From Azospirillaceae bacterium (GTDB lineage Bacteria; Pseudomonadota; Alphaproteobacteria; Azospirillales; Azospirillaceae): a stretch of DNA of 64,000 nucleotides. Positions 8,492-58,193 of this stretch are shown in pieces; position 1 is the stretch's first letter; every line of letters begins with the position of its first letter. The stretch lies in contig JAPWJW010000003.1 of NCBI GenBank assembly GCA_028283825.1, positions 1,860,501-1,924,500 on the forward strand. The letters run 5' to 3'. The position numbers were made by a program, and so were the translations under genes. Below the pieces are notes generated by a model. The model searched no databases. It was given only the letters and a program-made list of their open reading frames with translations, and was not told where the DNA came from.

Positions 8492-8651
8492 GGCGTTTGA
8501 TCGGCCACGATCAAACGCCCCCCTCAGGCGCCGGGCGCCAGCATCCGCTGGCTGGGCTTATCCTCCCTTTCCGGTCCGCCTACGGCTCCCCGGAAAGGTC
8601 CGGCGGCTGCGGTCGCAGCCTACGGCGGCACAAGGTGGGACCTCGTGCCGC
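8492..8651 (-). repeat. Five-hairpin intergenic repeat, copy A
   Basis: This is the most complete copy of the repeat family. In plus-strand order the hairpins are H1 8492-8519 (12-bp perfect stem GGCGTTTGATCG / CGATCAAACGCC), H2 8537-8552 (GCCAGC-ATCC-GCTGGC), H3 8566-8598 (CCTTTCCGG / CCGGAAAGG), H4 8605-8620 (GGCTGC-GGTC-GCAGCC) and H5 8625-8651 (GCGGCAC... / ...GTGCCGC). It starts eight bases after the trxA stop. The conserved CGGATG loop reads on the minus strand. Open frames across it are chance products of its high GC. Confidence 0.85.
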
Positions 8652-8703
8652 TGGTATGAAAGATGATCCGCGGGCGGTGACGTCTGCGGTGTTTGAAGGA
8701 AAA

Positions 8704-8736
8704 GGCGGGCGCCCCCGGTGGCAGCCCGCCTTTTTC
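8704..8736 (+). terminator. Rho-independent terminator after trxA
   Basis: GGCGGGC (8704-8710) pairs with GCCCGCC (8724-8730), followed by five T residues. It ends the trxA transcript after the repeat copy A. Confidence 0.8.
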
Positions 8737-8784
8737 TTGCGCCCGTGTCACGAAAGGACGCGGCCCGGAATTCCAACCTAACTT

Positions 8785-8805
8785 TGCGACTAATATTGAT
8801 TCGCA
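8785..8805 (+). promoter_or_regulatory. Iron-box-like palindrome upstream of the TonB receptor
   Basis: A 21-base imperfect palindrome with TGCGA and TCGCA ends around an AT-rich centre (TAATATTGAT) sits 49 bases before the receptor start, in a sharply AT-rich patch. TGCGAAT-type ends are seen in Fur/iron operators of this group. The sequence supports an operator; which regulator binds (Fur or the Irr homologue at 23699) is inference. Confidence 0.5.
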
Positions 8806-8853
8806 TTAACTTTTTCGTTAATTTTCCCCGCTTGATGAAGGGGAAGATAAAAA

Positions 8854-11157
8854 ATGATAACAAAATCAGAGATTTCATACCTGGCCTTGATGGTGGCGAC
8901 CCTGCTGGCGCCGGCCGGAGCGGCCCTGGCGGCGGACGCGTCGAACGCGGCGCCGGCGGAGGCGCCGATCGAGGAAATCATCATCACCGGTGAGAAGGCC
9001 GGCCGCACCCTGAAGGAAACCACCACCAGCGTCGCGGTCACCACGCCCGCCCGGATCGAGCAGGAGAACATCCAGTCCATCCAGGACATCTATGACCGGA
9101 CGGCCAACGTCTCACAGACCTATGGCGCCGCCGGCTTCACCATCCGCGGCATCGGCAACGCCGGCGTGTCGGGGGCGGGCAAGGCGGACGCGGCCACCGT
9201 CTACATCGATGGCGCGCCCATCCCCAGCGCCGCCCTGTTCGGCGGCCCCACCGACATGTGGGACGTCGCCCAGGTGGAGGTGCTGCGCGGCCCGCAGTCC
9301 ACCATCCAGGGCCTGAACGCCATGGCCGGGTCGGTGGTCATCACGACGCGCGAGCCCACCGACCATTGGACCGCCGACGCCCGCATCAAATGGACCGACC
9401 AGGACGAACGCACCTTCTCCGCCGCCGTCGGCGGCCCGCTGATCCAGGATGAGCTGGCCTTCCGCCTGTCGGCCGAACGGCGCGACGACCAGGGCCTGAT
9501 CAAAAACACGACGCTGGGCGGCTATGACGACGCGCTGCAATCCACCGATCTGCGCGGCAAGCTGAAATGGACGCCCAAGGCCATCCCCGACCTGACGGCG
9601 GTGTTGAGCTACAACCGCACCCGGCGTGACGGCGGTTACCTGTACGAATATGTCCGCACCGACGTGCCGGACTTCTACGACAACCGCACCTCGGCCTCCA
9701 ACCGGCCCAACATCGGCGACGTCGATACCGACATCGCCACCCTGAACCTATCCTACAAGCTGTCCGACACCCTGACGCTGACCAACGTCGCGTCGTGGAA
9801 CCAGTTGAAGCAGCGCGCCAGCCAGGACGGCGACGGCACGGCGGTGGATTCCCAGTACATCGACAACCGCACCAAGGCGACCACCTATACCGAGGAATTG
9901 CGCCTGAATTACCAAGGCGAACGGCTGAGCGGCCTGATCGGCGGCTGGTACTACAACCGCGACCTGACGCTGGACGCCGCCAACCAGATCAACGTCACCA
10001 CGCCCACCGCCACCATCGCCAGCCTGCTGCGCTCCGCCGGTTTTCCCACCGCCACGGCCAACGCCATCACCGCCAGCTATGCCGCGGCCTTGCCGGTCAT
10101 CCCCGTGGCCTACCAGTCCCAGCAGCCGGAAAGCGTGCAGACCGCCGCCCTGTTCGCCGACGGCCGCTATCGCCTGACCGACCAGCTGTCGCTGCTGGCG
10201 GGCTTCCGTTATGACCATGAGCAGAACCGCTATGGCGCCGGCACCACCACCCGCTTCACCGGCACCTATCCCGACCCCGCCGCCTTCGGCGCCGCCGGCA
10301 CGGCGCTGAACAGCGCCATCCGGGCCATCAACAGCGGTGTCGCCGGCATCGTGGCGCAAGCCGCGTCGGCCGCCGGGTCCAATGAGCGGACCTTCGACGC
10401 CTTCCTGCCCAAGCTGGGCGTTTCCATGGAATGGACGCCGGACCTGACCACCGCCTTCACGGTGCAGCGCGGCTATCGTTCCGGCGGGTCCAGCCAGAAC
10501 GCGGCCCACGCCACCCTGGTGCCCTACGATCCGGAATACAGCTGGAACTATGAGGGATCGATCCGCTCAAGCTGGCTGGACGGCACGCTGGGCCTGAACG
10601 CCAACGCCTTCTACACGGACTGGAGCGACCAGCAGGTCACCGTCTTCCTCAGCGACAACACCTACGACTACAACACCGTCAACGCCGGCAAGTCGCACCT
10701 GTACGGGTTCGAGCTGGAGGCCACGCACAAGATCAGCCCGGTGGTGGACTGGTACGCCTCCGCCGGTTACGTGCGCACCAAGTTCGATGAGCTGAACCTG
10801 CCGGCGGGGTCCACCACCACCGTCAGCCTGGCGGGGTCGGAATTCCCCTACGCCCCGCACTGGACCCTGGCCGGCGGCGTGAACCTGCATTTCGGCGGCG
10901 GCTTCGTCGGCAACCTGAACGCCAACTGGCGCGACGCCGTCTACACCTCCGTCGGCACCAACCAGTCACAGTACCGGGTGGACGCGCGCACGGTGGTCAA
11001 CACCCGCGTCGGGTACGAGACCGACCATTGGGGCGCCTATCTGTTCGTCGCCAACCTGCTGGACGAGAAGTACGAGCAGTACGTCTACGCCGCCCAGAAC
11101 CGCGCCATCCTGGGCGCCCCGCGCACCATCGGCGGCACGCTGGAGGTGCACTGGTAA
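8854..11157 (+). CDS. TonB-dependent outer-membrane receptor
   Basis: A 767-residue receptor. A signal peptide (LALMVATLLAPAGAALA, cleavage near residue 27) is followed by a TonB-box-like EEIIITGEK near 44-52, a plug domain to about residue 165 (IRGIGNAG, VEVLRGPQSTIQGLNAMAG), and a 22-strand beta-barrel that ends in an aromatic residue (GGTLEVHW). It imports a large ligand, probably a siderophore, in a TonB/ExbBD-driven way. The upstream palindrome suggests iron control. No transporter, FecIR-type regulator or siderophore gene is next to it, so the ligand is unknown. The long GATGAAGGGGAAG stretch before the ATG serves as ribosome site. Confidence 0.93.
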   Translation: MITKSEISYLALMVATLLAPAGAALAADASNAAPAEAPIEEIIITGEKAGRTLKETTTSVAVTTPARIEQENIQSIQDIYDRTANVSQTYGAAGFTIRGIGNAGVSGAGKADAATVYIDGAPIPSAALFGGPTDMWDVAQVEVLRGPQSTIQGLNAMAGSVVITTREPTDHWTADARIKWTDQDERTFSAAVGGPLIQDELAFRLSAERRDDQGLIKNTTLGGYDDALQSTDLRGKLKWTPKAIPDLTAVLSYNRTRRDGGYLYEYVRTDVPDFYDNRTSASNRPNIGDVDTDIATLNLSYKLSDTLTLTNVASWNQLKQRASQDGDGTAVDSQYIDNRTKATTYTEELRLNYQGERLSGLIGGWYYNRDLTLDAANQINVTTPTATIASLLRSAGFPTATANAITASYAAALPVIPVAYQSQQPESVQTAALFADGRYRLTDQLSLLAGFRYDHEQNRYGAGTTTRFTGTYPDPAAFGAAGTALNSAIRAINSGVAGIVAQAASAAGSNERTFDAFLPKLGVSMEWTPDLTTAFTVQRGYRSGGSSQNAAHATLVPYDPEYSWNYEGSIRSSWLDGTLGLNANAFYTDWSDQQVTVFLSDNTYDYNTVNAGKSHLYGFELEATHKISPVVDWYASAGYVRTKFDELNLPAGSTTTVSLAGSEFPYAPHWTLAGGVNLHFGGGFVGNLNANWRDAVYTSVGTNQSQYRVDARTVVNTRVGYETDHWGAYLFVANLLDEKYEQYVYAAQNRAILGAPRTIGGTLEVHW

Positions 11158-11167
11158 AGCATGCCCC

Positions 11168-11195
11168 GGGGCATGAGATTTGACTCATGCCCCTA
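11168..11195 (+). repeat. Left remnant of intergenic repeat copy F (hairpin H5 and TA)
   Basis: GGGGCATGAG and CTCATGCCCC form a 10-bp stem ten bases after the receptor stop, followed by TA. This matches hairpin H5 of copies B, C and E, which share the GGCATGAG arm and are joined to H4 near a TA. The rest of the copy continues at 12351, beyond the inserted elements. Confidence 0.65.
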
Positions 11196-11244
11196 GAGCG
11201 GAACGCGATCAGGTGGAATCACCTGATCGTGTAAATCCGCTCTA
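11194..11244. repeat. TA-GAGC palindromic mini-element with GGAATC loop
   Basis: TAGAGCGGA and TCCGCTCTA are the ends, so the element is bounded by TA on both sides. Inside is the hairpin GATCAGGT-GGAATC-ACCTGATC. The plan matches the palindrome at 5279. It has no coding capacity. The GAGC termini match the first four bases of the neighbouring IS630 ends, which suggests a miniature element; that relation is inferred. Confidence 0.65.
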
Positions 11245-11258
11245 TCATGAACAGCTTA

Positions 11259-11297
11259 AGAGCAAGATGCGATCACACGTGATCGCATCTTGCTCTA
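11259..11297. repeat. 18-bp-stem perfect palindrome abutting the IS
   Basis: AGAGCAAGATGCGATCAC and its exact complement are separated by two bases, giving a 38-base near-perfect palindrome. Its right end (GCTC-TA) is directly joined to the left end of the IS630 element. It resembles the AGAGCCTG palindrome at 5340. Confidence 0.65.
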
Positions 11298-11310
11298 GAG
11301 CATTATGATT

Positions 11311-11853
11311 TTAGGTTGGTCCATACCCGCAACTTTTGAAGTAGTTTGAGCATTCCGCTGGCGTAACAGTATCCATGGTCTTTACGATGCTCTTGCAGAG
11401 GGCCTCGATAGATCGTGGCTGGGCCTCACGCAAAGAATGCTTGAGCTTGGAGAAGAACTTCTCGATGGGGTTCATGTCCGGGGAGTATTTTGGTAAGAAG
11501 ATTAACTTAGCGCCGGCGTCGCGGATGGCCTTGCGAACGGGCTTGGCCTTGTGGGAGGGAAGGTTGTCCATGATGACGACATCGCCCTTGCTCAAGGTCG
11601 GAGCGAGAACCTCCTCGACATAGACCTGGAAGCGCTGGCCGTTGACGGGCTTGTTCAAGAGCCAAGGAGCCTCGATGCGGTCATGGCGCAGGGCGGCCAG
11701 GAAGGTCATGGTGTTCCAATGGCCAAAGGGCGCCTTGCCGACAAGGCGCTCACTGCGCGGCCCCCATCCTCGGAGTGGCGCCATGTTGGTTTTGGTCCAG
11801 GTTTCGTCGATGAACACCAGGCGGGACGGATCGACCGACGCCCGGTGCTTCAC
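11311..11853 (-). CDS. IS630-family transposase, catalytic part (orfB)
   Basis: This 180-residue frame is the DDE domain of an IS630-type transposase: FIDETWTKTNM holds the first Asp, VIMDNLPSHK the second, and SPDMNPIEKFFSKLK the final Glu. Translated alone it would start at an internal ATG. The region upstream in this frame (KTLVASEQDRPDVAHRRAQW) is typical of a full-length transposase, so the product is most likely made by -1 frameshifting from the HTH frame at 11850-12269. The two frames overlap by four bases at the formal stop/start. Confidence 0.88.
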   Translation of the reverse strand: MKHRASVDPSRLVFIDETWTKTNMAPLRGWGPRSERLVGKAPFGHWNTMTFLAALRHDRIEAPWLLNKPVNGQRFQVYVEEVLAPTLSKGDVVIMDNLPSHKAKPVRKAIRDAGAKLIFLPKYSPDMNPIEKFFSKLKHSLREAQPRSIEALCKSIVKTMDTVTPAECSNYFKSCGYGPT

Positions 11854-12269
11854 CCATTGCGCTCGTCGGTGGGCAACGTCGGGGCGGTCCTGCTCGCTGG
11901 CGACCAGCGTCTTTTTTTATAAGTCAGCCCCTGGCCACGGACGAACTCCCAGACCGAACGGTAGTCGACCTTCAGGCCGCGTTCCCCCAGTTCCGCGATC
12001 AGGACGGCCAGGGTGAAGGGCCGCTCCTGGCAGCGCGCAACAAGCCAGGTGTGATGGTCACCGGATATCTTCTTGGGCTTGTGACCGCCCATCTGACCAG
12101 GGGCGACGTCACCCGTCTCGTTCAGGCGCTTCATCCACCTGATCGCCGCGCTGTCGCTCACACCGAACCGAGCCGCCGCCTGACGCCGCGACAGGCCCCC
12201 CTGAACTGCGGCCACTACCCGTTCACGAAGATCCATTGAATACGGACGACCCATCGCCACTGCCTCCAT
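11850..12269 (-). CDS. IS630-family transposase, DNA-binding part (orfA)
   Basis: The 139-residue frame contains two helix-turn-helix units: SRRQAAARFGVSDSAAIRWMKR near residues 26-47 and a second winged region to about 115 (ERGLKVDYRSVWEFVRGQGLTYKKR). These bind the terminal repeats. The last 20 residues after YKK are out-of-frame sequence. Translation is expected to slip back one base at a run of seven A residues (minus strand, 11918-11912) to join the catalytic frame. Confidence 0.85.
   Translation of the reverse strand: MEAVAMGRPYSMDLRERVVAAVQGGLSRRQAAARFGVSDSAAIRWMKRLNETGDVAPGQMGGHKPKKISGDHHTWLVARCQERPFTLAVLIAELGERGLKVDYRSVWEFVRGQGLTYKKRRWSPASRTAPTLPTDERNG
11911..11919 (-). other. Probable -1 frameshift signal in the IS630 transposase
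   Basis: On the minus strand the sequence is TAAAAAAAG. In the orfA frame it reads TAT-AAA-AAA-AGA; re-reading one A gives AAG-ACG-CTG and continues into the catalytic frame as KTLVASEQDRPD. Seven consecutive A residues allow ribosomal or transcriptional slippage. Confidence 0.7.
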
Positions 12270-12350
12270 CTCAAGACAGACGCAGTGAATCAGAGGCCCA
12301 AATAAATGGGAATCCCCCTTACCGATTCAGCCTTATTTCAAAATGCTCTA

Positions 12351-12450
12351 GGCCGCGACTGCGGCCACCGGAGTTTTGTGGGGAGCCGAAGGCGGACTGC
12401 AAAACGAGGATAGCCAAGCCGCCGGATGGTGGCGCCCGGCGACTGAGGGG
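12351..12450 (+). repeat. Intergenic repeat copy F, right part
   Basis: Hairpin H4 12351-12366 (GGCCGC-GACT-GCGGCC), H3 12373-12405 (GTTTTG / CAAAAC around GGGGAGCCGAAGGCGGAC) and H2 12418-12433 (GCCGCC-GGAT-GGTGGC, with one G-T pair) end with CGGCGACTGAGGGG. The copy begins directly at the TA flanking the IS and ends a few bases before the folC stop. Its H5 lies at 11168. Confidence 0.85.
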
Positions 12451-12454
12451 TGGG

Positions 12455-13741
12455 CTAACCGTTGTCGGCCAGGATGGCGCCCGCCAGGTACAGCGACCCG
12501 CAGATCAGCGTGCGGGTCGCCGCGTCCTGGGCCAACTGGGCCACGGCGTCGGCCGGGCTGGCGGCCTCGCTCACCTGGCCGATGCCCACGGTGCGGGCGG
12601 CCTCGGCGATGTCGGCAGCGGGGCGTGTCGCCTCCTCCCCCGGGATGGCAATGGCCACCAGGCGGCGGACATGGGGGGCGATGGGCGCCAGGAAGTCGGC
12701 CGGCACCTTGCTGGTTATCATGCCGACCACCAGGTCCAGCGATTGGTCGCCTTCGGTCCAGCTGGCGGCCTGGTGGCCCAGCACCTCACCCGCCGAGTCG
12801 TTATGGCCGCCGTCCAGCCACAGCTCGGTGGACGGCAGCAGGGCGGCCAAGGGCCCCTGGGTCAGACGCTGCAACCGGCCCGGCCATTCCACCGTGGCCA
12901 GGCCCCTGACGATGTCGGCGTCCTGCACCGTCAACGGCACGTGGTGCAATGCGGCGATAGCGGTGCCGGCGTTGCCGATCTGGTGGGCGCCCAACAGGCC
13001 GGGCATGGGCAGATCCAGCACCCGGCCATAACCTTCGAAACGGAAACCCACGGCCGTGGGCAGGGCCGACCATTCGGCGCCGGCCAGGAACAGCGACGCC
13101 CCCAGCACGGCAGCACGCTCACGGAAGACGGACAGCGGCACGTCGGGCGCCTGCGGGCCCACCACCGCCGGCCGGCCGGCCTTGAAGATGCCGGCCTTCT
13201 CGCCCGCGATCTCAAACAGGGTCTCGCCCAGGAACTGGGTGTGGTCGAAGGAGATGCGGGTGACCACCGACACGGCCGGCGCGTCCACCAGGTTGGTGGC
13301 GTCCAGCCGCCCGCCCAGGCCGGTTTCCAGCAGCAGCACGTCGGCCGGCACCTCGGAATACGCCAGGAAGGCGGCGACGGTGATGATCTCGAAGATGGTG
13401 ATGGGTTCGCCCTGGTTGGCGGCCTCGCACCGTTCCAGCAGGTCGATCAGCTGGGCATCGTCCACCAGCTTTCCCGCCAGGCGGACACGCTCATTGAAGC
13501 GCACCAGGTGGGGACTGGTGTAGACGTGGACCTTGTGGCCCGCCGCCTCCAGCATGGCGCGCAGGAAGGCGATGGTGCTGCCCTTGCCGTTGGTGCCGGC
13601 GACGTGCACCACGGGGGGCAGATGATCCTGCGGCCGCCCCAGCCGGTCCAGCAGCCGCTGTACCCGCTGTAGCGACAGGTCGATGACCTTGGGATGCAAT
13701 TGGCCCAACCGGGCCAACACCTGGTCCAGATCGCTTACCAT
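12455..13741 (-). CDS. folC: Bifunctional folylpolyglutamate / dihydrofolate synthase
   Basis: A 428-residue Mur-ligase-fold enzyme. The ATP loop is HVAGTNGKGS at residues 46-55, followed by SPHLVRFNERVRL and the conserved ETGLGGRLDATN near 140. It adds glutamate to dihydropteroate and to folates in the cytosol. The ATG lies behind GAGGGGGAA. It is the last gene of trpB-trpA-accD-folC on the minus strand, an order common in alphaproteobacteria. A copy of the structured repeat (B) separates it from accD, so it may need its own promoter or read-through. Confidence 0.97.
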   Translation of the reverse strand: MVSDLDQVLARLGQLHPKVIDLSLQRVQRLLDRLGRPQDHLPPVVHVAGTNGKGSTIAFLRAMLEAAGHKVHVYTSPHLVRFNERVRLAGKLVDDAQLIDLLERCEAANQGEPITIFEIITVAAFLAYSEVPADVLLLETGLGGRLDATNLVDAPAVSVVTRISFDHTQFLGETLFEIAGEKAGIFKAGRPAVVGPQAPDVPLSVFRERAAVLGASLFLAGAEWSALPTAVGFRFEGYGRVLDLPMPGLLGAHQIGNAGTAIAALHHVPLTVQDADIVRGLATVEWPGRLQRLTQGPLAALLPSTELWLDGGHNDSAGEVLGHQAASWTEGDQSLDLVVGMITSKVPADFLAPIAPHVRRLVAIAIPGEEATRPAADIAEAARTVGIGQVSEAASPADAVAQLAQDAATRTLICGSLYLAGAILADNG

Positions 13742-13777
13742 TTCCCCCTCAATCGCCGGTCGTGGCCTAATACGCGC

Positions 13778-13923
13778 GGCCTTTGATCGTGACCGATCTA
13801 AGGCCCCCTCAATCGCCGGGCGCCGGCATCCGCCGGCTTGGCTTGTCCTCGTTGCGCCCTGCGGTGCTCACTCCGGCGGCTGCGGTCGCAGCCTAAGCGG
13901 CATGAGTCAAAGTCTCATGCCGC
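13778..13923 (-). repeat. Five-hairpin intergenic repeat, copy B
   Basis: H1 13778-13805 (GGCCTTTGATCG / CGATCTAAGGCC, one mismatch), H2 13822-13837 (GCCGGC-ATCC-GCCGGC), a degenerate H3, H4 13878-13893 (GGCTGC-GGTC-GCAGCC) and H5 13897-13923 (GCGGCATGAG / CTCATGCCGC). It fills most of the accD-folC gap. The motif CCCCCTCAATCGCCGG that follows H1 occurs a second time at 13744-13759, just before folC. Confidence 0.85.
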
Positions 13924-13940
13924 TGGTTTTGTTTTAGGTC

Positions 13941-14858
13941 TTAACGGTTTTTACCGACGGCCACGGGACGCGGGCGGCCTTCGGTGGGGATACGCACCAC
14001 GTCGGCGCCGGGGCCGGGGCTGCGCAGCAGGTCGATCAGGCGGGCCAGCATGCCGCGCATCTCACGACGGTGCACCACCATGTCCACCATGCCGTGTTCC
14101 AGCAGGTATTCCGACCGCTGGAAGCCTTCCGGCAGGGTCTCGCGGATGGTGCTTTCGATCACGCGGGCGCCGGCGAAGCCGATCTGGGCGCCGGGTTCGG
14201 CCAGGTGGATGTCGCCCAGCATGGCGAAACTGGCGGTCACGCCACCCGTGGTCGGGTCGGTCAGGATGACCAGATAGGGCAGGCCCGCCTCTTTCACCAT
14301 CTCGGCCGCGATGATGGTGCGCGGCATCTGCATCAGCGACAGGATGCCTTCCTGCATGCGCGCCCCACCGGAGGCCGGCACCACGATCAGCGGCGCCTGC
14401 TGCAGCACGGCCAGCTTGGCGGCGGCCAGCAGGCCCTCGCCCACCGCCATGCCCATGGAACCGCCCATGAAGGTGAAGTCGAAGGCGGCAACCACGGCGG
14501 CGCGCCCGTCGATGCGGCCATGCGCCACGACGATGGCGTCCGGCCGGCCGGTCTTGGACTGCGCGTCCTTCAGGCGGTCGGTATAGCGCTTCTGGTCGCG
14601 GAACTTCAGCGGATCCACCACCGGCTTGGGCAGCTCAATGGTCTGGAAGCCGGGGTCCAGGGTCATGCGCAGGCGCTGCATCGGGTCCAGGCGCATGTGG
14701 AAGCCGCAATGCTGGCAGACGTGCAGGTTCTCTTCCAGGTCGCGGTGGAAGATCATCGCGCCGCAGGACGGGCACTTGTGCCAGAGGTTGTCCGGCACCT
14801 CTTTCTTGGACACCAGGGCCTGAAGCTTGGGGCGGACGAAATTAGTGAGCCAGTTCAT
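13941..14858 (-). CDS. accD: Acetyl-CoA carboxylase carboxyltransferase subunit beta
   Basis: The 305-residue protein begins [13 protein letters not shown] and carries the four-cysteine zinc finger typical of AccD (C29, C32, C48, C51), followed by the crotonase-fold carboxyltransferase core ([22 protein letters not shown]). With AccA it transfers carboxyl from biotin carboxyl carrier protein to acetyl-CoA, the first step of fatty-acid synthesis. The ATG at 14858 gives the family N-terminus; the longer frame to 15242 is trpA sequence in another frame. It follows trpA after 109 bases and is followed by repeat copy B. Confidence 0.97.
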
Positions 14859-14967
14859 GTGCTTAACCTTGGAAAGACATTCGCCGGACCGGGACCGGCG
14901 CTGACAAACACCAGCGGGGGCGGCACCATGCGGTGCGCCCCCGATAGGCGAAAGCCGATCTTGTAGC

Positions 14968-29197: not shown

Positions 29198-29357
29198 TGC
29201 ATTTGATCGTGAACGCTCAAATGCACCCTCAAGCGCCGGGCGCCAGCATCCGCCGGCTTGGCTGATCCTCGCGTTTTGGTCCGCTATGCTCCCCCAAAAC
29301 ACTGCGGCGGCCGCCGTCGCGGCCTACAGCGGCATGAGCGGAAGTCTCATGCCGCTG
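29198..29357 (-). repeat. Five-hairpin intergenic repeat, copy C
   Basis: H1 29198-29225 (TGCATTTGA / TCAAATGCA), H2 29242-29257 (GCCAGC-ATCC-GCCGGC, one mismatch), H3 29273-29300 (GTTTTGG / CCAAAAC), H4 29309-29324 (GGCCGC-CGTC-GCGGCC) and H5 29327-29357 (CAGCGGCATGAG / CTCATGCCGCTG, 12 bp perfect). H5 directly abuts the ribA stop codon. Confidence 0.87.
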
Positions 29358-44434: not shown

Positions 44435-44690
44435 CCCGCAAAGCGTTCCAGCCAGCCACCAGATCGTCGATGGCCGGATCGTTATGAGGATTGCTGCGGC
44501 GGATCATAGTCGCCACGGCGTTTTGCGCAAAGGGTTTTCATGCGCCATCCGCCATGTCCCTGGGGAGGTGCAGGCCAGCGTCACCGCCGGTTGTCCCACA
44601 ACCCACCAGTATTGGTGCCAATAAGAACCACCGAGACCCCATATGGTGTTCGGTCGCCCCTTTGACAAGAGGTATCAAGCCCCCAAACCG
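44435..44690. other. Non-coding stretch in the rimP-dehydrogenase gap
   Basis: This is part of a 517-base gap. I looked for the tRNA that precedes rimP in enterobacteria and found none. No open frame with a ribosome site is visible. Repeat copy G follows. Confidence 0.4.
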
Positions 44691-44822
44691 GCGGCATGAA
44701 AGCTTATTTCATGGCGCTGTAGACCGCGACCGCGGTCGCCGGAGATTTTCGGGGAGCCGAAGGCGGACTGAAAATCGAGGACAAGGCAAGGCCCCGGATG
44801 GGGCCGCCCGCCGCCTGAGGGC
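44691..44822 (+). repeat. Intergenic repeat copy G (four hairpins)
   Basis: H5 44691-44717 (GCGGCATGAAA / TTTCATGGCGC, one mismatch), TA, H4 44722-44737 (GACCGC-GACC-GCGGTC), H3 44744-44776 (GATTTTC / GAAAATC around GGGGAGCCGAAGGCGGAC), H2 44790-44805 (GGCCCC-GGAT-GGGGCC), then CGCCTGAGGG. It ends five bases before the dehydrogenase stop. H1 is absent. Confidence 0.87.
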
Positions 44823-44826
44823 AAAT

Positions 44827-45816
44827 TTAAAACATGGATTCGATCACGCGGTCGGGCGGCTTGTGACCATCGACGAAGGTCTTGATATTGACGATGACCT
44901 TTTCGCCCATATCCTGCCGCCCCTCGATGGTGGCGGACCCCATGTGCGGCAAAAGCACCACGTTGTTCAGCGCCAGCAGCTTGGGATTGACGGCCGGTTC
45001 CTGTTCGAACACGTCCAGGCCGGCGGCGCCGATCTCACCCTTCGCCAGCTTGCGCGTCAACTCGTTCTCGTCGATCACCTCGCCGCGCGCGGTGTTGACG
45101 ATGATGCTGTTGGGGCGCAGCAGGTTCAGGCGCCGGGCGGACAGCAGATGGTACGTCGCCGGCGTGTGCGGGCAGTTGATGGAGATGACGTCCATCCGCG
45201 CCAGCATCTGGTCCAGGCTTTCCCAGTAGGTCGCCTCCAGTTCCTGCTCGATCTCGGGATGGACGCGGTGCCGGTTGTGATAGTGGACCGACAGGCCGAA
45301 GCCGCGGGCGCGGCGGGCCAGCGCCTGGCCGATGCGGCCCATGCCGACGATGCCCAGGCGCTTGCCCCAGATGCGGGTGCCCAGCATCTGGGTGGGGCCC
45401 CAGCCCGTCCACTGGCCGGCGCGGATCAGGCGCTCGCCCTCGCCCACGCGCCGCGCGGTGGCCAGGATCAGGGCCATGGTCATGTCGGCCGTGTCCTCGG
45501 TCAGGACGCCCGGCGTGTTGGTGACCATGATGCCGCGCTCACGCGCCGCCTTCAGGTCGATGTGGTCGACGCCGTTGCCGAAATTGGCGATCAGCTTCAA
45601 CTGCGGTCCGGCGTGGGCCAGGACGGCGGCGTCGATGCGGTCGGTGACGGTGGGGACGACGACGGTGGCGACCCGGAACGCCTCCGCCAGTTCGGCGGGG
45701 GGCATGGCGTGGTCGTCGGCGGAAAGCCGGGTGTCGAACAGCTCCATCATCCGCGTCTCGATGACGTCGGGCAGCTTGCGCGTCACGATGACGAGGGGTT
45801 TTTTCCGCTCGGACAT
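44827..45816 (-). CDS. D-isomer-specific 2-hydroxyacid dehydrogenase (glyoxylate/hydroxypyruvate reductase type)
   Basis: A 329-residue NAD(P)-dependent enzyme. The dinucleotide motif is GIVGMGRIGQALARRARGFG near 150; the catalytic Arg is in NTARGEVID, Glu in AAGLDVFEQEP and His in LLPHMGSAT. It probably reduces glyoxylate or hydroxypyruvate; the substrate is not fixed by the sequence. The ATG at 45816 follows GGGAGGAACCA. It is monocistronic, divergent from the SH3 protein gene. Confidence 0.93.
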   Translation of the reverse strand: MSERKKPLVIVTRKLPDVIETRMMELFDTRLSADDHAMPPAELAEAFRVATVVVPTVTDRIDAAVLAHAGPQLKLIANFGNGVDHIDLKAARERGIMVTNTPGVLTEDTADMTMALILATARRVGEGERLIRAGQWTGWGPTQMLGTRIWGKRLGIVGMGRIGQALARRARGFGLSVHYHNRHRVHPEIEQELEATYWESLDQMLARMDVISINCPHTPATYHLLSARRLNLLRPNSIIVNTARGEVIDENELTRKLAKGEIGAAGLDVFEQEPAVNPKLLALNNVVLLPHMGSATIEGRQDMGEKVIVNIKTFVDGHKPPDRVIESMF

Positions 45817-49557: not shown

Positions 49558-49704
49558 GCCTTTTCCAGCGCAAGGAGAAGCGCCTCAACACGCGCCATCG
49601 CCTCGGCATGCGGGATACTGGGTGCCGGATCATCCATGGACGCCCGCACCTTCGCCCGAAACCAGCGGTCATGGTCGGCCGCTGGTTTTTCTATTTCAGG
49701 CTCA

Positions 49705-49715: not shown

Positions 49716-50823
<1,108 letters not shown>

Positions 50824-50849
50824 CGGTGTCGCTCCCTTTTTTGTTGTCC

Positions 50850-50979
50850 CTCAGGCGCCGGGCGCGGACATCCGCCCGCTTGGGCTTCCTCAGTTTCCAG
50901 TCCGCTACGCTTCCCGGAAACTTCCGGCGCCCGCAGTCGCGGGCTTCAACGACATGAAGCACAGCTTCATGTCGTTGAA
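50850..50979 (-). repeat. Intergenic repeat copy D (four hairpins)
   Basis: H2 50864-50879 (GCGGAC-ATCC-GCCCGC, one A-C mismatch), H3 50892-50922 (AGTTTCC / GGAAACT), H4 50929-50944 (GCCCGC-AGTC-GCGGGC) and H5 50945-50979, a perfect 16-bp stem TTCAACGACATGAAGC with a three-base loop. H5 differs almost entirely in sequence from other copies yet pairs perfectly. H1 is absent. It lies just before mtnA. Confidence 0.87.
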
Positions 50980-51013
50980 CTTGACCATCCTGGCGACATG
51001 ACGCGCAAACGAC

Positions 51014-51045
51014 AAGGCCCCCGGAACCGGGGTTCCGAGGGCCTT
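51014..51045 (-). terminator. Terminator after infC
   Basis: AAGGCCC...GGAACC and GGTTCC...GGGCCTT form a long stem with small bulges about 35 bases after the infC stop. The T tract is weak, but position and stem strength suit a terminator. Confidence 0.65.
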
Positions 51046-51079
51046 TGACGAAGTCGACTGGATGACCGACCCGGCGCGT

Positions 51080-51616: not shown

Positions 51617-51790
51617 GGAACCTTCTCCCTGGTTTACAGTGGCCGCCGGATGGTTCGGGCCCCGGTCGGGGCGGGCGGCATCACCGGTTCGAAAAAGACG
51701 TAGAAGAGTACTTGTAAGAAAAGACGGGGCGGCGCAACTGCGGATTTGGCTTACCGGCCCCGTCCAACGCTGGTCAGACCATAATTATCC

Positions 51791-53779
51791 TCAGAACGCG
51801 GTGTCCGTCACTCCCCCCGAAGGGACAGGGGCTTGCGCTTCCTGGCTAAGCGCCGCCACGGCGTCGTCCAGCGACATCAGTTCCTGGTCCTTGCCGCCCA
51901 GGCGACGTAGGGCCACGGTGCGGTTCTCCGCCTCGCGCCCGCCGACCACCACCATGACCGGCACCTTGGCCAGCGAATGCTCGCGGACCTTCAGGTTGAT
52001 CTTCTCATTGCGGATGTCGGTTTCGACCCGCAGGCCGGCCCGGCGCAACGTGGCCGCCACTTCCTTGGCATAGTCGTCGGCATCCGAAACGATGGTGGCC
52101 ACCACCGCCTGCACCGGCGCCAGCCACAGCGGGAACTTGCCGGCGTAATGCTCGATCAGCATGCCGATGAAACGCTCCAGCGAGCCCAGGATGGCCCGGT
52201 GCAGCATCACCGGCCGGTGCCGCTGGCTGTCCGCCCCGATGTAGGAGATGTCCAGCCGTTCCGGCAGGACAGCATCATACTGAAGCGTGCCGCACTGCCA
52301 GGTGCGGCCGATGGCGTCGGTCAGGTGGAATTCCACCTTGGGGCCGTAGAAGGCCCCCTCCTCCGGCAGTTCCTCGAACGGCAGGCCGGCGGCGTTCAGC
52401 GCGTCGCGCAGCGCCGTCTCGGCCATGTCCCAGGTCTCGTCGGAACCGGCGCGGACCGGCGGACGCAGCGCCAGCTTCACGTCGATCTTCTCAAAGCCCA
52501 GTTCCTGGTACACGCCCAGCTGCAGCTTGAAATACTCGGCCGCTTCCGACGCCGCCTGTTCGGGCGTGCAGAAGATGTGGGCGTCGTCCTGGGTGAAGGC
52601 GCGGACGCGCAGGATGCCGTGCAGCGCGCCCGAGGGCTCGTTGCGGTGGCAGGCGCCGAATTCCGCCATGCGCAGCGGCAGGTCGCGGTAGCTTTTCAGG
52701 CCCTGGCGGAAGATCTGGGCGTGGGCCGGGCAGTTCATGGGCTTCACCCCTAAGAACTTCTCATGCCCCTCGGCATCCACCGACTCCCGGATCTTGAACA
52801 TGTTGTCGCCATACATGTCCCAGTGGCCCGACGCCTTGAACAGGCTGCTGTCGTACAGCTGCGGCGTGCGCACCTCGACATAGTCGGCGGCGCGCAGCTT
52901 GGCCCGGATGTAGTTTTCCAGCGTGCGGTACAGGGTCCAGCCCTTGGCGTGCCAGAAGACGCTGCCCGCCGCCTCTTCCTGCAGATGGAACAGGTCCATC
53001 TCGCGGCCCAGCTTGCGATGGTCGCGCTTTTCCGCTTCCTCGATCTGGTGCAGGTGTTCCGCCAGCTCCTTCTCCGTCCGCCAGGCGGTGCCGTAGATGC
53101 GCTGGAGCATGGGGTTGCGGCTGTCGCCGCGCCAATAGGCGCCCGCCACCTTCATCAGCTTGAAGGCGTGGCCGACCTTGGAGGTGGACGGCAGGTGGGG
53201 GCCGCGGCAGAGGTCGTACCAGTCGCCCTGGCGATAGATGGTGATCTTCTCGCCCGCCGGGATGTCGCCGATGATCTCGGCCTTGTAATGCTCACCGATC
53301 GACTTGAAGTGGGCGATGGCCTCGTCCCGGTCCCATTCCTCACGGGTGAAGGGGCGGTCGGCGTCCACGATCTCGTGCATGCGCTTCTCGATCTTCACCA
53401 GATCGTCGGGCGTGAACGGCTCGGCGCGCGCGAAGTCGTAGTAGAAGCCGGTGGCGATGGACGGGCCGATGGTCACCTGGGTGCCGGGGTACAGCTGCTG
53501 CACCGCCTCGGCCAGGATGTGGGCGCTGTCGTGGCGGATCAGTTCCAGGGCGTAGGGCGCGTCGCGCGTCAGGATCGCGACCTTGGCGTCGGCCAGGATG
53601 GGACGCGTCAGATCCCATTCCGCCCCGTCCACCGTCACGGCCAGGGCGGCCTTCGCCAGGCTCTTGGAGATCGACTGCGCGATTTCCAAGCCAGTGACGC
53701 CCACCGCGTAAGTTCGCACGTTGCCATCGGGCAACGTGATCGCGATCTGGGGCTGGTCAAGGTTTTCAGCGGTCGTCAT
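51791..53779 (-). CDS. thrS: Threonine-tRNA ligase
   Basis: A 662-residue class II synthetase. Domains in order: TGS ([24 protein letters not shown]), the editing domain with its HxxxH motif ([18 protein letters not shown]), the catalytic core (motif 2 [47 protein letters not shown] region) and the anticodon-binding C-terminus ([23 protein letters not shown]). The ATG at 53779 gives the family N-terminus. It precedes infC, as in many bacteria. Confidence 0.98.
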
Positions 53780-53939
53780 GGCGTTCAGGGTTTGTCCAAA
53801 TTGAGGAAGGGCGACTTTGGGTAGCGGGGGCGGAACTGTCAAGGCCCGGGCCCGGGGGTAAGCCGGCTGGTGAGGCTGTGGGGCCGCATGGCTGTGTCCC
53901 TCAGGGCACAGCGGTACGCAACATTGGAACAAAACACCT

Positions 53940-54929
53940 TCAGAACAGCATGCCGCCGCCTTCGGGCGCGTCCTCCAGGGCCGTGTCGCCGGGGGCCACG
54001 TCCGGCGTAGCGCGCAGGCGCAGGGCGCTTTCCACCGCGTCCACGTCCAGATCGCCCAGGTCCAGGCTTTTGATCCAGGCCGCGTCCGGCCCCCAGGGGG
54101 CGGAGCGGGCGGGATCGGTGTGATGCGACATCAGCATCAGGGTCGGGCAGCCCAGGGCCGCCGTCAGGAAGATGGGGCCGGTGTCGTTGCCGACGGCACC
54201 CCGCGCCAGACGCGCCAGCCCGCCCAACTGGCCCAGGCTGGTGCGGCCCACCAGGTCCACCGCCCACGGACAATCCTTGACGATGGCGCGGGCGGCATCG
54301 CCGTCGGCGTCCGTGCCCACCACCACCGGCACCAGGCCGCGATCAGTGAGGCGGCGGCCCAGGGCGGCGTAGCGTTCCGCCGGCCAGCGCTTGTGCGGCA
54401 GATGGGGGGAGCATCCCGGCACCAACAGGACGAACGGCCCCTCGGGCGCCAATGCTGAAACATCGCCGTCCAGCCAGCCCAGATCGGCCGGCCCGGTGTC
54501 CGCCACGCCGGCGGCATCCAGCTGAAGGCGGTAACGGTCGTGGTTGTGCAGACCCGCCACCGGGGGCAGCGGAAAGGCGGCCCCCTTGGCGGCACCGGAC
54601 CACAGGGGGCGTTTCCCCGGGCCCATCAGCCAGAAATAGCGCGCCGTGCGCGGCTTGTTCTGCAAATCATAGATGTGGTCGAAACCCGCCCGGCGCAAGC
54701 GGGCCCGCATGCGCAGGTAGGCCAGCGGCGACGCGCTGCGCGCATCGTCCCACACCTCATCGAACCAGGGCATGGCCCGGCCGAAGCCGGTGAAGGCGGT
54801 GCCGGTCAACAGGGTGATGGAAGCGTCGGGATGCCGGTGGCGGATGGACTGGAAGGCGTCGAAGCACTGCACCAGGTCGCCCAGGGCACCCAGGCGGATG
54901 ACCAGGACGCGGCCGCCCTGCGCCGTCAC
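53940..54929 (-). CDS. Glycosyltransferase family 9 (heptosyltransferase-like)
   Basis: A 329-residue GT-B protein. It begins [36 protein letters not shown], the ADP-heptose-transferase pattern, and ends with [22 protein letters not shown], the nucleotide-sugar site. It probably adds heptose in the LPS core. The start is GTG at 54929, overlapping the stop of the upstream glycosyltransferase (GTGA). The two form an LPS-type pair. Confidence 0.92.
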
Positions 54930-56221
54930 GAACGCGCCTTGCGATAGGCGGCCATGCCGGTGGTGGCGCGCAGGTGCAGCAGCTCGGCATAAACCGCCAG
55001 CGTGCTGTCGCACATGCGTTCGCGGGTGTAGTTGGCCAGCACGAAGCGGCGGGCGTCGGCGGCCAGGGCGCGGCGCTGCAAGGCGTCCAGGTTCAGCGCC
55101 TCACCGATGGCGGCGGCCATGGTGGCGGGGTCGTTTGGGGGCACCACCAGGCCGGTTTCACCATCCACCACGGTTTCCTCAACCGCGCCATGGTTGGTGA
55201 CGATGACCGGCTTGCCCATGGCCTGGGCCTCCACGATCACGCGGCCGAAGGCCTCGGGCCGGGACGACGCGCTGACCACCACATCGGACAGCAGGTAGGC
55301 GGCCGCCATGTCGTTGCAATGGTCGGCGATGGTCACCTGGCCTTCCAGGCCCAGAGCCCGGATGCGGGCGACCAGTTCGGCGCGGTATTCGGTGCGGCCC
55401 TGGTCCGACCCCACCAGCACGGCGCGCACGTCGTCGCGCTTCAGCAGGGCGATGGCCTCGATCAGGTCCAACTGGCCCTTCCAGCGGGTCAGGCGGCCGG
55501 GCAGCAGGACGATACGCTGGTCTTCCGGCAGGCGCCAGTCGCGCGCCAGCTTGATCAGGCGTTCCTGGCTGACCCGGTCGGGGTCCAGGTTCAGGGTGTC
55601 GACGCCGCGCGGGATGGTGCGCAGGCGGTCTGGCCCCACGCCGTAGTTGGCGGCCACATGGTCGGCCACGAAGCGCGACACGGCGATGACCCGGTCGCCC
55701 CGGCCCATGACGCTGTTGTAGCGGCGCTTCAGCTTGCCCTTGAAACCGTACGGCGCGTGGAAGGTGGTGACGAAGGGGATGCCGGTGCGGCGTGCCGCGA
55801 TCCAGGCGCTCCACGCCGGCGCGCGCGAGCGGGCATGGATGATGTCCACGCCGCGCGTGCGGATGATCTCTTCCAGCTTGGCGGCGTTGCGCCAGATGGT
55901 GAAGGGGTTCTTGGACGCCAGCGGCAGGGTGATGTGTTCCGCCTTGTAGCGTTCCAGTTCGCGCGCCATGGGCCCGCCGCCTGACGCCACCAGGGCCGTG
56001 CCGCCGGCGCGCATGAGGGCCGCCGCCATGTCGACGCAACCCCGCTCCGCCCCGCCGGTCACCAGGCTGGGGATGACCTGCAGCACCACGGGCCGCCCGC
56101 CGCCGAACCACCCCGCCGCTGCCGTCGTGGCACCATCGGGAATGGACCCGTCGGGCGGGGTCCCGGCATTGCCGGTGTCGATTGAGGCCGTTAGGGTGCC
56201 GGATGTGTGGGGGAGCGTCAT
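54926..56221 (-). CDS. Glycosyltransferase family 4
   Basis: A 431-residue GT-B enzyme. The N-lobe has VLQVIPSLVTGGAERGCVDMAAAL near residues 46-69; the donor site has LPGRLTRWKGQLDLIEAIALL and SSRPEAFGRVIVEAQAMGKPVIVTNHGAVEETV with the EX7E motif of this family. It probably builds a surface polysaccharide or LPS core. The first 40 residues are unstructured. Its start is divergent from the hydrolase gene at 56237 with 15 bases between, so both promoters overlap the coding starts. Confidence 0.92.
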   Translation of the reverse strand: MTLPHTSGTLTASIDTGNAGTPPDGSIPDGATTAAAGWFGGGRPVVLQVIPSLVTGGAERGCVDMAAALMRAGGTALVASGGGPMARELERYKAEHITLPLASKNPFTIWRNAAKLEEIIRTRGVDIIHARSRAPAWSAWIAARRTGIPFVTTFHAPYGFKGKLKRRYNSVMGRGDRVIAVSRFVADHVAANYGVGPDRLRTIPRGVDTLNLDPDRVSQERLIKLARDWRLPEDQRIVLLPGRLTRWKGQLDLIEAIALLKRDDVRAVLVGSDQGRTEYRAELVARIRALGLEGQVTIADHCNDMAAAYLLSDVVVSASSRPEAFGRVIVEAQAMGKPVIVTNHGAVEETVVDGETGLVVPPNDPATMAAAIGEALNLDALQRRALAADARRFVLANYTRERMCDSTLAVYAELLHLRATTGMAAYRKARS

Positions 56222-56236
56222 CTGGGGAAGGCAAGC

Positions 56237-56998
56237 ATGGCGGATACGTCGATACATAGCGTACAGCGGGGGGCCGCCACCATAGCCTATCGACGCACGC
56301 TCGGCCGTGGCCCCGGAATTGTCTTCCTGGGTGGGCTGAAGTCCGACATGACGGGAGCCAAAGCCACCACCCTGGAGGCCTACGCCCAGGCCCGGGGGCA
56401 TGCCTTCGTCCGTTTCGACTACCAGGGCCACGGGGCGTCCAGCGGCGACTTCCGCGACGGCACCATCGGCACCTGGGCCGAAGACGCGATCGCCGTGCTG
56501 GACACGGTGACCGAGGGGCCGCAAATCCTGGTGGGGTCCAGCATGGGCGGCTGGATCATGCTGCTAGCCGCCAGGGCACGGCTGGGCCGCGTGCACGCCC
56601 TGGTGGGCATCGCCCCGGCACCTGACTTCACCGAACGCCTGATGTGGGCGCGCATGGATCCGGAAGCGCGCGCCGCCCTGGTGCGCGACGGTGAATGGCG
56701 CCAGCCCTCGCTGTACGACGATGCGGGTTACCCCATCACCCGCACGCTGATCGAGGATGGCCGGCGCCACCTGCTGCTGGACAGCCCACTGGAATTGCCG
56801 GTGCCCGTGCGCCTGATCCACGGCCAGCGCGACGCGGACGTGCCGTGGCGAACCAGCCTGGATTTGGCGGCCACCCTGTCGCACGACGACGTGCGCGTCA
56901 CCCTGGTGAAGGACGGTGACCACCGCCTGTCCCGCCCCCAGGATTTGGACCTGATCGCCGCCACGGTGGGCGCGTTGCTGGAGACCACGCCATGCTGA
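56237..56998 (+). CDS. Alpha/beta hydrolase (ABHD10-like)
   Basis: A 253-residue alpha/beta hydrolase. The nucleophile is Ser in VGSSMGGW near 105, the acid Asp in IHGQRDADVPW near 199 and the His in KDGDHRLSRPQDL near 230. FLGGLKSDMTGAKA and RFDYQGHGASSGDF form the oxyanion side. It resembles ABHD10-type thioesterases. GGGGAAGG precedes the ATG at 56237. It overlaps the next gene by seven bases. Confidence 0.9.
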   Translation: MADTSIHSVQRGAATIAYRRTLGRGPGIVFLGGLKSDMTGAKATTLEAYAQARGHAFVRFDYQGHGASSGDFRDGTIGTWAEDAIAVLDTVTEGPQILVGSSMGGWIMLLAARARLGRVHALVGIAPAPDFTERLMWARMDPEARAALVRDGEWRQPSLYDDAGYPITRTLIEDGRRHLLLDSPLELPVPVRLIHGQRDADVPWRTSLDLAATLSHDDVRVTLVKDGDHRLSRPQDLDLIAATVGALLETTPC

Positions 56999-58062
56999 AC
57001 CGCCGCCATCTGCTGCTGGCCGGTGCCGCCCTGCCCCTGGCCGCGTCCTTTCCGGCGGTCGCCAAGGGCAACCCCGACGCCATCATCGACGCCTATGTCC
57101 GGGACACCGGCTTCCAGGGTGTGGTCATGCTGGGTCGCAACGGACATGCCGACTACACCCGGGTCATCGGCTTCGCGGATATCGAGGCGGGGGTGCCGGC
57201 CAAGGCCGATACGCTCTACGGCATCGCCTCCATCTCCAAATGGCTGACCAGCGTGACGGTGCTGAAGCTGGTGGAACGGGGGCTGCTGGATCTGGACGCC
57301 CCCATCACCAAGGCGCTGCCGGACTATCGCGCCGACACCGGCGCCAAGGTCAGCCTGCGCCGCCTGCTGTGCAACGCCAGCGGCGTGCCCAACCTGTTCA
57401 CGTCCGCCATCAAGGCCGATCCCGCCCTGTTCCGCACCCCGCTGACGACGGCGGAGGCGGTATCAAAGTTCTGTCTGGGCGACCTGGCGTTCGAGCCCGG
57501 GACCAGGTTCGACTACGCCCTGACCAACTGGATCCTGGTGGTGGCCATGGTGGAGCGGGTGACCGGCCTGCCCTTCCAGGCGGCGGTGCGGTCCATCACC
57601 CTGGAACCGTTGGGCCTGGCCGCGACATCGGCCACCGACGCGGCGTTCGCCGCGGCCGCCGCCTCATACCGCACGGTGACGCCGCCGGAACGCTGGCCCA
57701 ATGACCGCCAGGCCTATATGGCGGCGGCCGGCGGTTACTTCAGCACGGCCCCCGACCTGATGCGCGCGGCCCACCTGATCTTCGACACGGGCTTCCTGAC
57801 GCCCGCGTCGCGCCGCCAGCTGACGACGGTGGAGGTTCCGAGCGAATCCTACGCCCTGGGCGGCAGGGTGCGGACCCTGTCCATCGACGGCAAGACAGTG
57901 CCCGCCGGGTGGGAGACGGGCCGGACGGCCGGCTATCGTTCCGTCCTGGGGCATCGCCTGGACGGCAAGCGGACGGTGGTCATCCTGAACAACACCGGCC
58001 TGTCGCAGAAAACCATGGACCAGTTCGCCGACGCCCTGCTGGGTGCGGCACCACGGACATGA
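56992..58062 (+). CDS. Beta-lactamase-fold serine hydrolase
   Basis: A 356-residue protein with an N-terminal export signal (NRRHLLLAGAALPLAASFPAVAKG) and a class C beta-lactamase/PBP-like domain. SxxK is ISKW-type (SISK) near 81-84, YxN is FDYALTN near 174-180, and a GH-type stretch VLGHRLDGK lies near 322. It may be a D,D-peptidase or esterase in the periplasm; not a proven lactamase. It overlaps the hydrolase gene, and repeat copy H starts right after its stop. Confidence 0.9.
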   Translation: MLNRRHLLLAGAALPLAASFPAVAKGNPDAIIDAYVRDTGFQGVVMLGRNGHADYTRVIGFADIEAGVPAKADTLYGIASISKWLTSVTVLKLVERGLLDLDAPITKALPDYRADTGAKVSLRRLLCNASGVPNLFTSAIKADPALFRTPLTTAEAVSKFCLGDLAFEPGTRFDYALTNWILVVAMVERVTGLPFQAAVRSITLEPLGLAATSATDAAFAAAAASYRTVTPPERWPNDRQAYMAAAGGYFSTAPDLMRAAHLIFDTGFLTPASRRQLTTVEVPSESYALGGRVRTLSIDGKTVPAGWETGRTAGYRSVLGHRLDGKRTVVILNNTGLSQKTMDQFADALLGAAPRT

Positions 58063-58193
58063 GGCGCCACGAAATTCAGTTCGCGCCGTTATAGCCCGCG
58101 ACTGCGGGCACCGGAGATTTTTGGGGAGCCGAAGGCGGACTGAAAATCGAGGACAAGGCAAGGGCCCGGATGGGCCCGCCCGCCGTCTGAGGG
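58063..58193 (+). repeat. Intergenic repeat copy H (four hairpins)
   Basis: H5 58063-58087 (GGCGC / GCGCC with a bulge, then GAA / TTC), TA, H4 58094-58109 (GCCCGC-GACT-GCGGGC), H3 58116-58148 (GATTTT / AAAATC), H2 58162-58177 (GGGCCC-GGAT-GGGCCC), then GTCTGAGGG. It fills the whole space between two convergent stop codons, starting at the base after one stop and ending eight bases before the other. Confidence 0.87.

What the first reader, a model, noticed from the sequence alone, without database searches (positions are those of the whole stretch)
8492..58193. Structured intergenic repeat family with covarying hairpins, at least eight copies in 64 kb
Copies lie at 8492, 11168+12351, 13778, 29198, 44691, 47376, 50850 and 58063, in both orientations. 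The full form has five hairpins. The same stem has different sequences in different copies but usually still pairs: H4 is GGCTGC/GCAGCC, GGCCGC/GCGGCC, GACCGC/GCGGTC or GCCCGC/GCGGGC; H2 is GCCAGC/GCTGGC, GCCGGC/GCCGGC, GGCCCC/GGGGCC or GGGCCC/GGGCCC; H3 is CCTTTCCGG/CCGGAAAGG, AGTTTCC/GGAAACT, GTTTTG/CAAAAC or GATTTT/AAAATC. Loops and linkers stay constant (CGGATG, GGGGAGC..AGGCGGAC, GAGGA, GCGCCCGGCG-CTGAGGG). This pattern implies selection on structure, as RNA or as extruded DNA. I know no name for it. Roles could be 3' UTR processing, termination, protein binding, or a REP-like mobile repeat.
Basis: partly seen in the sequence, partly recalled or inferred. Interest (0 to 1): 0.82.

Follow-up and report, generated by a model that had tools for sequence, protein, structure and literature searches.

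The report
Mobile hairpin repeat at stop codons
A small mobile piece of bacterial DNA, present in hundreds of copies just behind genes, keeps a fixed folded shape although nearly every copy spells its hairpin stems differently, which makes it an unusually clear natural record of selection on nucleic-acid structure.

Summary
The window lies in a Nitrospirillum genome (Azospirillaceae). A covariance model from seven window copies finds 125 copies (E<=0.01) in 864 kb, extrapolated to roughly 700 per genome. In 97 aligned copies 97.2% of stem cells pair, and the 14 most strongly covarying column pairs are all stem pairs. Stem alleles of different helices assort almost independently: 94 of 97 copies have a unique H4/H3/H2 combination.

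It is best read as a small non-autonomous mobile element. Fourteen copies of the homologous 156-bp element in Azospirillum ramasamyi have TACC...GATA-like ends, 12 of 14 with identical 3-bp TNA duplications. One filled/empty site pair shows insertion exactly at a cytochrome stop codon. Window copy 8484-8656 has the same kind of ends and duplicates the thioredoxin stop codon TGA. Copies avoid genes and divergent gaps.

One strand folds better, and its loops follow rules known for ultra-stable DNA mini-hairpins, so I favour a single-stranded-DNA fold at moderate confidence; RNA is not excluded. No transposase was found. No Rfam match; compensatory stems in mobile repeats have precedent (REPINs).

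The parts
8484..8656 (-). Full element (H1 + core 8521-8622 + H5), ends TACC...GGTA on the + strand; TGA duplicated at 8481-8483 (thioredoxin stop codon) and 8657-8659
   Evidence: thioredoxin by Pfam
11168..11193 (+). H5 of the element at 12349, separated from its core by insertions at CTAG
12349..12449 (+). Core (H4-H3-H2-TGAGGG) of the interrupted element, 5 nt from the stop codon of a folC-like gene on the - strand
   Evidence: R1 117.3 bits; Mur-ligase domain
13778..13925 (-). Element with H1 (13778-13805), core with short H3 (13806-13895) and H5 (13896-13925), behind accD-like gene
   Evidence: R1 80.4 bits
29198..29357 (-). Element with H1 (29198-29225), core (29226-29326) and H5 (29327-29357)
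   Evidence: R1 104.9 bits
44690..44821 (+). Element with H5 (44690-44719) and core (44720-44821), 5 nt from the stop codon of the gene at 44827 (-)
   Evidence: R1 121.8 bits
47374..47425 (-). Internally deleted copy: TGAGGG end, H4 and H5 without H3 and H2
   Evidence: R1 33.7 bits, E=5e-4; a full copy stands at this site in G003
50848..50977 (-). Element with core (50848-50946) and H5 (50947-50977)
   Evidence: R1 98.3 bits
58080..58193 (+). Element with H5 remnant (58080-58091) and core (58092-58193) between convergent genes
   Evidence: R1 120.6 bits

Best explanation
A family of small non-autonomous mobile elements (about 100-190 bp). SHOWN: many copies, almost only behind genes; the homologous element in Azospirillum ramasamyi inserts with a 3-bp TNA target duplication that can be the stop codon itself, leaving the gene intact; three internal hairpins (H4, H3 with its cap, H2) keep pairing while their stems change; one strand ('B', reading TAG-H4-H3-H2-TGAGGG) is predicted to fold better than its complement; stem alleles recur in several Nitrospirillum strains and are mixed between copies. 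INFERRED: a transposase acting in trans recognises the TACC ends; the internal hairpins are selected because the B strand must fold, most likely as single-stranded DNA, to be recognised or protected when the element spreads; exchange between copies shuffles stem alleles; the place behind genes is kept because insertion there does little harm.
For: Filled and empty site with TAA duplication at a stop codon (annotation of the cytochrome gene); 12 of 14 A. ramasamyi copies with identical TNA duplications; window copy 8484-8656 with the same ends and a TGA duplication; five window sites with no element in any relative whose flanks were found; homology across genera through H4 and H2; covariation with nearly free assortment of helices; B more stable in 94 of 97 (RNA) and 88 of 97 (DNA) copies; conserved G.T in H3 on B only; GNA/GNNA caps in 87 of 95 readable H3 loops, loops that PMC4686876 describes as ultra-stable DNA mini-hairpins; no orientation preference towards transcription in tandem gaps (33 v 32), which fits selection on the element rather than on an mRNA.
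Against: No transposase with matching ends was found. Clean duplications are visible in only about 5 of 21 Nitrospirillum copies with both terminal hairpins. Apart from two H3 columns, the G.T over A.C excess on B is clear only on the model-fitted alignment (44 v 18), not on the independent one (40 v 32, p=0.41). No replication-strand bias (63 v 60). H4 loops (GACB) fit no DNA-loop rule that I know. Of three annotated A. ramasamyi insertions only one is exactly at an annotated stop codon. RNA folding is also favoured on B, so ssDNA is not distinguished from RNA by energy.
Confidence: 0.6

Rival explanations
1. A 3'-UTR RNA element: the hairpin array protects mRNA 3' ends, slows ribosomes near the stop codon or ends transcription, and benefit to the host keeps the stems paired.
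For: Strict location behind genes, 56 of 89 copies facing a sense gene within 14 nt of its stop codon. REPs within 15 nt of a stop codon are reported to lower translation (PMC12306157, passages). B folds well as RNA.
Against: In tandem gaps both orientations are equally frequent (33 v 32) although only B is well folded; gene ends with the element have T-tailed hairpins about as often as those without (convergent 30 of 90 v 28 of 64, tandem 16 of 57 v 52 of 223); sites are not conserved between species. No RNA data were available.
Confidence: 0.22
2. A REP/REPIN family once spread by a RAYT (HUH) transposase that the genus has lost.
For: Palindromic intergenic repeat in both orientations, convergent and tandem gaps, near 3' ends, as for GTAG and CGTC REPs (PMC3733652, passages); TAG, often GTAG, before H4; single-strand preference; REPINs show compensatory changes (PMC3116915, passage).
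Against: No Y1_Tnp in any of the seven Nitrospirillum genomes, nor in G017 and G023, which carry related repeats; 3-bp duplications in the relative, whereas HUH ssDNA transposition leaves none (recalled).
Confidence: 0.1
3. Covariation without selection: hairpin-templated repair (quasipalindrome correction) copies a mutation from one arm to the other.
For: Unpaired intermediates are rare, and stems at the same site differ much between species.
Against: A G.T wobble persists in most copies instead of being corrected, and loops, linkers and several stem pairs hardly vary; each stem position has its own restricted allele set and H4 alleles behave as haplotypes (113 of 156 differ by exactly one swap, 66 expected).
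Confidence: 0.08

Closest known systems
Bacterial MITEs (ERIC, NEMIS/Correia, RUP, YPAL, CIR; reviewed in PMC2229807, two of three parts read)
   Same: Under about 200 bp, no protein, intergenic, structured transcripts, end repeats and target duplications
   Different: G+C-rich; several independent covarying hairpins inside; 3-bp TNA duplication that can be the stop codon; no end-to-end single hairpin; partner transposase unknown
REP / BIME / REPIN repeats (PMC3733652, PMC8266576, PMC3116915)
   Same: Hundreds of palindromic copies near 3' ends of convergent or tandem genes; one strand preferred; compensatory change reported for REPINs
   Different: No RAYT in the genus; target duplication in the relative; five-hairpin architecture; different conserved motifs
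CGTC-tagged REPs of Alphaproteobacteria (PMC3733652, passages)
   Same: Same class of host, near 3' ends, no dedicated transposase known
   Different: No CGTC tag at the ends read here; much longer and modular
BOX/SPRITE and bcr1-type structured mobile repeats (recalled; SPRITE and BOX mentioned in PMC10969869, passages)
   Same: Modular, mobile, structured
   Different: No sequence relation was tested; covariation and stop-codon insertion as seen here are not known to me for them

Membership tests
MITE | Short non-coding element with terminal inverted repeats | tested here: met
   TACC...GGTA at 8484-8656; TACC...GATA/GGTA in relatives; the strictly repeated part is short (4-5 bp)
MITE | Target-site duplication and empty sites | tested here: met
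   12 of 14 A. ramasamyi copies and one filled/empty pair; in Nitrospirillum itself only about 5 of 21 by eye
MITE | Ends shared with an autonomous transposon | tested here: inconclusive
   IS5-type elements in G000 and G033 have GAG-type ends; no matching long element in G033 with up to 3 mismatches
REP/RAYT | RAYT (Y1_Tnp, PF01797) in the genome | tested here: not met
   0 of 7 Nitrospirillum genomes; control genomes ring
REP/RAYT | GTAG next to the palindrome | tested here: inconclusive
   TAG precedes H4 in most copies; the preceding G is present mainly when H5 is present
REP/RAYT | Spread as ssDNA without target duplication | tested here: not met
   TNA duplications in the homologous element; the rule itself is recalled
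CGTC REP | CGTC at one end | tested here: not met
   Ends read are TACC / TAG / TGAGGG
Rfam family | Match at gathering score | tested here: not met
   None in the window; best weak matches E=0.024 or worse in the stretches tried
CsrA-binding RNA | CsrA (PF02599) in the genome | tested here: not met
   None in G000
3'-UTR RNA element | Transcript ends or RNA at the copies | not testable with these tools
   No RNA-seq at hand

The most novel reading that the evidence does not exclude
A genome-wide recombining pool of hairpin alleles: a mobile element whose B strand works as folded single-stranded DNA built from DNA-specific mini-hairpins, with stems that act as interchangeable cassettes swapped between hundreds of dispersed copies and shared between species, while loops and linkers are held fixed by a structure-reading enzyme not yet described.
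Probability: 0.3. Interest if true: 0.85.

Novelty: new variant of a known kind. Interest (0 to 1): 0.62.

Why it matters
Hundreds of structural variants in one genome form a ready-made covariation experiment. They allow a direct test of whether bacterial repeat hairpins are selected as RNA or as single-stranded DNA, and of how dispersed repeats exchange sequence. Insertion at a stop codon with duplication of that codon is a neat way for a mobile element to enter gene-dense DNA without breaking genes. Annotation or 3'-UTR studies in Nitrospirillum, Azospirillum and Niveispirillum will meet these elements.

Tried and rejected
RAYT/HUH mobilisation: no Y1_Tnp in the seven Nitrospirillum genomes. 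CsrA sponge, suggested by repeated GGA in unpaired parts: no CsrA in the genome. Terminator role: no clear difference in T-tailed hairpins. Replication-strand targeting: no orientation bias. Plasmid or phage origin: the 44690-44824 element has no match in either collection; related elements occur on Azospirillum and Niveispirillum records of the plasmid collection. Stand-alone H5, H1 or H2 modules: my patterns found none in 864 kb, every match lay beside a core. Autonomous partner in A. ramasamyi: the only end pair 0.3-10 kb apart is the IS-interrupted copy. IS1031-group transposition rests on a recalled TNA duplication; the paper search for it listed nothing. Literature: the listings of searches show no paper describing this repeat in Nitrospirillum or Azospirillum (30 of 272 papers listed; the library is partial). 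Gene calls come from a simple codon-usage script that misses atypical genes such as the IS transposase.

Full report
WHAT WAS CHECKED. I aligned seven window cores (A3), wrote the structure by hand and built a covariance model, R1. R1 finds seven full copies and one deleted copy in the window, and 125 hits with E<=0.01 in the 864 kb searched. Contig C3, from which the 864 kb come, carries 50 of the 94 exact H3-loop matches of the genome; scaling by this gives roughly 700 copies per genome, an extrapolation and not a count.

ANATOMY. I call 'B' the strand that reads TAG-H4-H3-H2-TGAGGG. H4 is a 6-bp stem with mostly a GACC, GACT or GACG loop. H3 is a 9-bp stem, then a GGA/GGA internal loop, then a mini-hairpin mostly capped by GNA or GNNA. 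H2 is a 6-bp stem with mostly a GGAT or GGAC loop inside an outer GCC/GGC or GGC/GCC stem. H5 lies before and H1 after the core; my hairpin finder saw H5 in 62 and H1 in 27 of 123 copies. Simple patterns for H5, H1 (two) and H2 (two) matched only beside a core: 24/24, 10/10, 19/19, 86/86 and 12/12.

COVARIATION. A MAFFT alignment of 97 copies (A7) was used because it was not fitted to the structure. These are the 99 best hits less two tandem copies (L106:5130 and L106:5239); the weaker hits, among them most short-H3 forms, were left out. Of 2433 cells 97.2% pair; 415 cells have both sides changed against 115.5 +- 7.5 in shuffles; the covariation score is 0.489 against 0.150, and at most 0.087 when the partner is slid. 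The number of pairs with any double change did not beat shuffling (16 v 15.1). Of all column pairs the 14 with the strongest corrected G statistic (57-171) are all pairs of the structure; 20 rounds of column shuffling reached at most 30. Shared descent is an unlikely cause: 94 of 97 copies have a unique combination of H4, H3 and H2 alleles, and mutual information between helices is at its shuffled level for most pairs, slightly above it for H4-H3 (11 of 500 shuffles as high) and H4-H2 (18 of 500), and clearly above it only for H2 with its own outer stem.

STEM ALLELES. H4 has five main alleles (GGACGC, GCCCGC, GGCCGC, GGCCCC, GGCTGC) among 177 aligned hits, 100 from G000 and 77 from named Nitrospirillum contigs. 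The first four recur in several strains; GGCTGC was seen there only in G000, though a G006 element carries it. Of 156 readable H4 stems 113 differ from GGCCGC at exactly one position; 66 would be expected if positions were independent. The stems thus behave like haplotypes that are mixed between copies. At site 58063, G000, G002, G003 and G005 carry a copy in the same orientation; no two share all stems, but G003 and G005 share H4 and G002 and G003 share H3. At site 50850, G003, G004 and G006 share the TTA-TACCAGCGG junction and differ in H4, H3 and H2, while G000 has a copy in the opposite orientation. The gene ends beside these two sites are 76-94% identical to G000 in these relatives. I read this as exchange between copies; replacement by new insertions or recurrent compensated change is not excluded.

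GENE CONTEXT. Using genes called by my own script, 1 of 123 copies overlaps a gene by more than 20 nt. Gaps of at least 100 bp are occupied in 48 of 77 convergent, 58 of 243 tandem and 2 of 117 divergent cases. On the TGAGGG side 56 of 89 copies that face a sense gene end within 14 nt of its stop codon, and 18 more lie at 35-60 nt, about the length of H1. In tandem gaps orientation is 33 to 32 (all). There is no bias against replication (63 to 60). T-tailed hairpins are about equally frequent at gene ends with and without the element (convergent 30 of 90 v 28 of 64; tandem 16 of 57 v 52 of 223).

MOBILITY. The gaps holding window copies at 8492, 12351, 13778, 29198 and 44691 have no element in any relative with both flanks found (4, 4, 4, 4 and 5 relatives; loose motif matches are short chance-level ones). 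Conversely, relatives carry copies where G000 has none, for example three in tandem in L119 of G003. Other genera of the family carry homologues with the same H4 and H2 but a shorter middle and other terminal hairpins. In G033, which matches Azospirillum ramasamyi by replicon lengths, I fetched 16 loci. Fourteen copies had both ends readable; all are 156 bp, and 12 of 14 have the same three bases on both sides: TGA, TCA or TAA. Three loci were not scored: one IS-interrupted, one without the right end, one without the exact core. In 8 of 14 the duplicated stop closes a frame open for at least 80 codons. At one locus the filled site reads AGAAG-TAA-[element]-TAA-GACCGC and the empty site in G025 AGAAG-TAA-GACCGC; the public annotation ends a c-type cytochrome gene at the base before the element. 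In two other annotated loci no annotated stop codon lies at the junction. In the window 8484-8656 has TACC and GGTA ends and TGA on both sides, the left one being the thioredoxin stop codon. Among 21 Nitrospirillum copies with both terminal hairpins about five keep a clean duplication by eye; age may explain this, but it is weaker evidence.

WHICH STRAND, WHICH NUCLEIC ACID. B is predicted to fold better than its complement in 94 of 97 copies with RNA and 88 of 97 with DNA parameters. In H3 one pair is G.T in 80 of 99 rows and another T.G in 25 of 99; the other strand would have A.C there. Outside these two columns the G.T over A.C excess is 44 to 18 on the model-fitted alignment (100 rows) but 40 to 32 on the independent one (p=0.41). 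H2 loops in 123 copies: GGAT 81, GGAC 16, GGAG 3, GCAT 2, GAAT 2, GAAG 1, GTAT 1, GCAA 1, AAAT 1, and 15 unread or unusual. H3 caps: GNA 73, GNNA 14, other 8; 28 of 123 were not read in standard context (sums). PMC4686876 (passages) states that GNA or GNNA loops on at least two G-C pairs make extraordinarily stable mini-hairpin DNA. That cGNABg is a stable DNA tetraloop and that GGA/GGA forms sheared pairs is recalled. This favours folded ssDNA, but RNA is not excluded.

WHAT IT IS CALLED. No Rfam family matches. It meets the MITE criteria apart from a known partner. It fails RAYT-REP membership, though it resembles REPs in location (PMC3733652, passages) and REPINs in compensatory change (PMC3116915, passage). 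I file it as a new family of MITE-like structured repeats, a new variant of a known kind. A pattern for one common H3 form found 64 stretches in the genome collection, all Nitrospirillum or 'Azospirillum sp. B4'.

PAPERS. Abstract and passages: PMC12306157, PMC3116915. Abstract and introduction: PMC8266576. Two of three parts of the text: PMC2229807. Passages only: PMC3733652, PMC10969869, PMC4686876, PMC2267715, PMC3899980.

Noticed in passing
window 11193-12351: Two nested insertions at CTAG: a small AGAGCGGAA..CCGCTCT-type palindrome and an IS630-type element (DDE_3 and HTH domains in two frames, joined at an A-run that looks like a frameshift site) split one repeat copy.
   Followed up: partly
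L106:5021-5338: Three head-to-tail copies at 109-bp spacing, two of them nearly identical; similar tandem or inverted neighbours occur elsewhere (L101, L081, L093).
   Followed up: no
site of window 58063 in G003 and G005: Both relatives carry a short tandem duplication of the H3 5' arm at this site, with different sequence and length, as if slippage or template switching recurs in this hairpin.
   Followed up: no
G033 C1:633933, C7:27049, C7:78223: Overlapping forward and reverse matches suggest stand-alone 38-bp TACC..GGTA palindromes resembling H5 alone in A. ramasamyi.
   Followed up: no
G010 (Azospirillaceae genus g5), many contig ends: Many copies of the homologous repeat with the same score lie within about 200 bp of contig ends, so recent amplification may break the assembly; this genome also has Y1_Tnp matches.
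   Followed up: no
G000 C2-C5: IS5-type insertion sequences with GAG-type ends and TNA-like duplications are present in the window's genome.
   Followed up: partly
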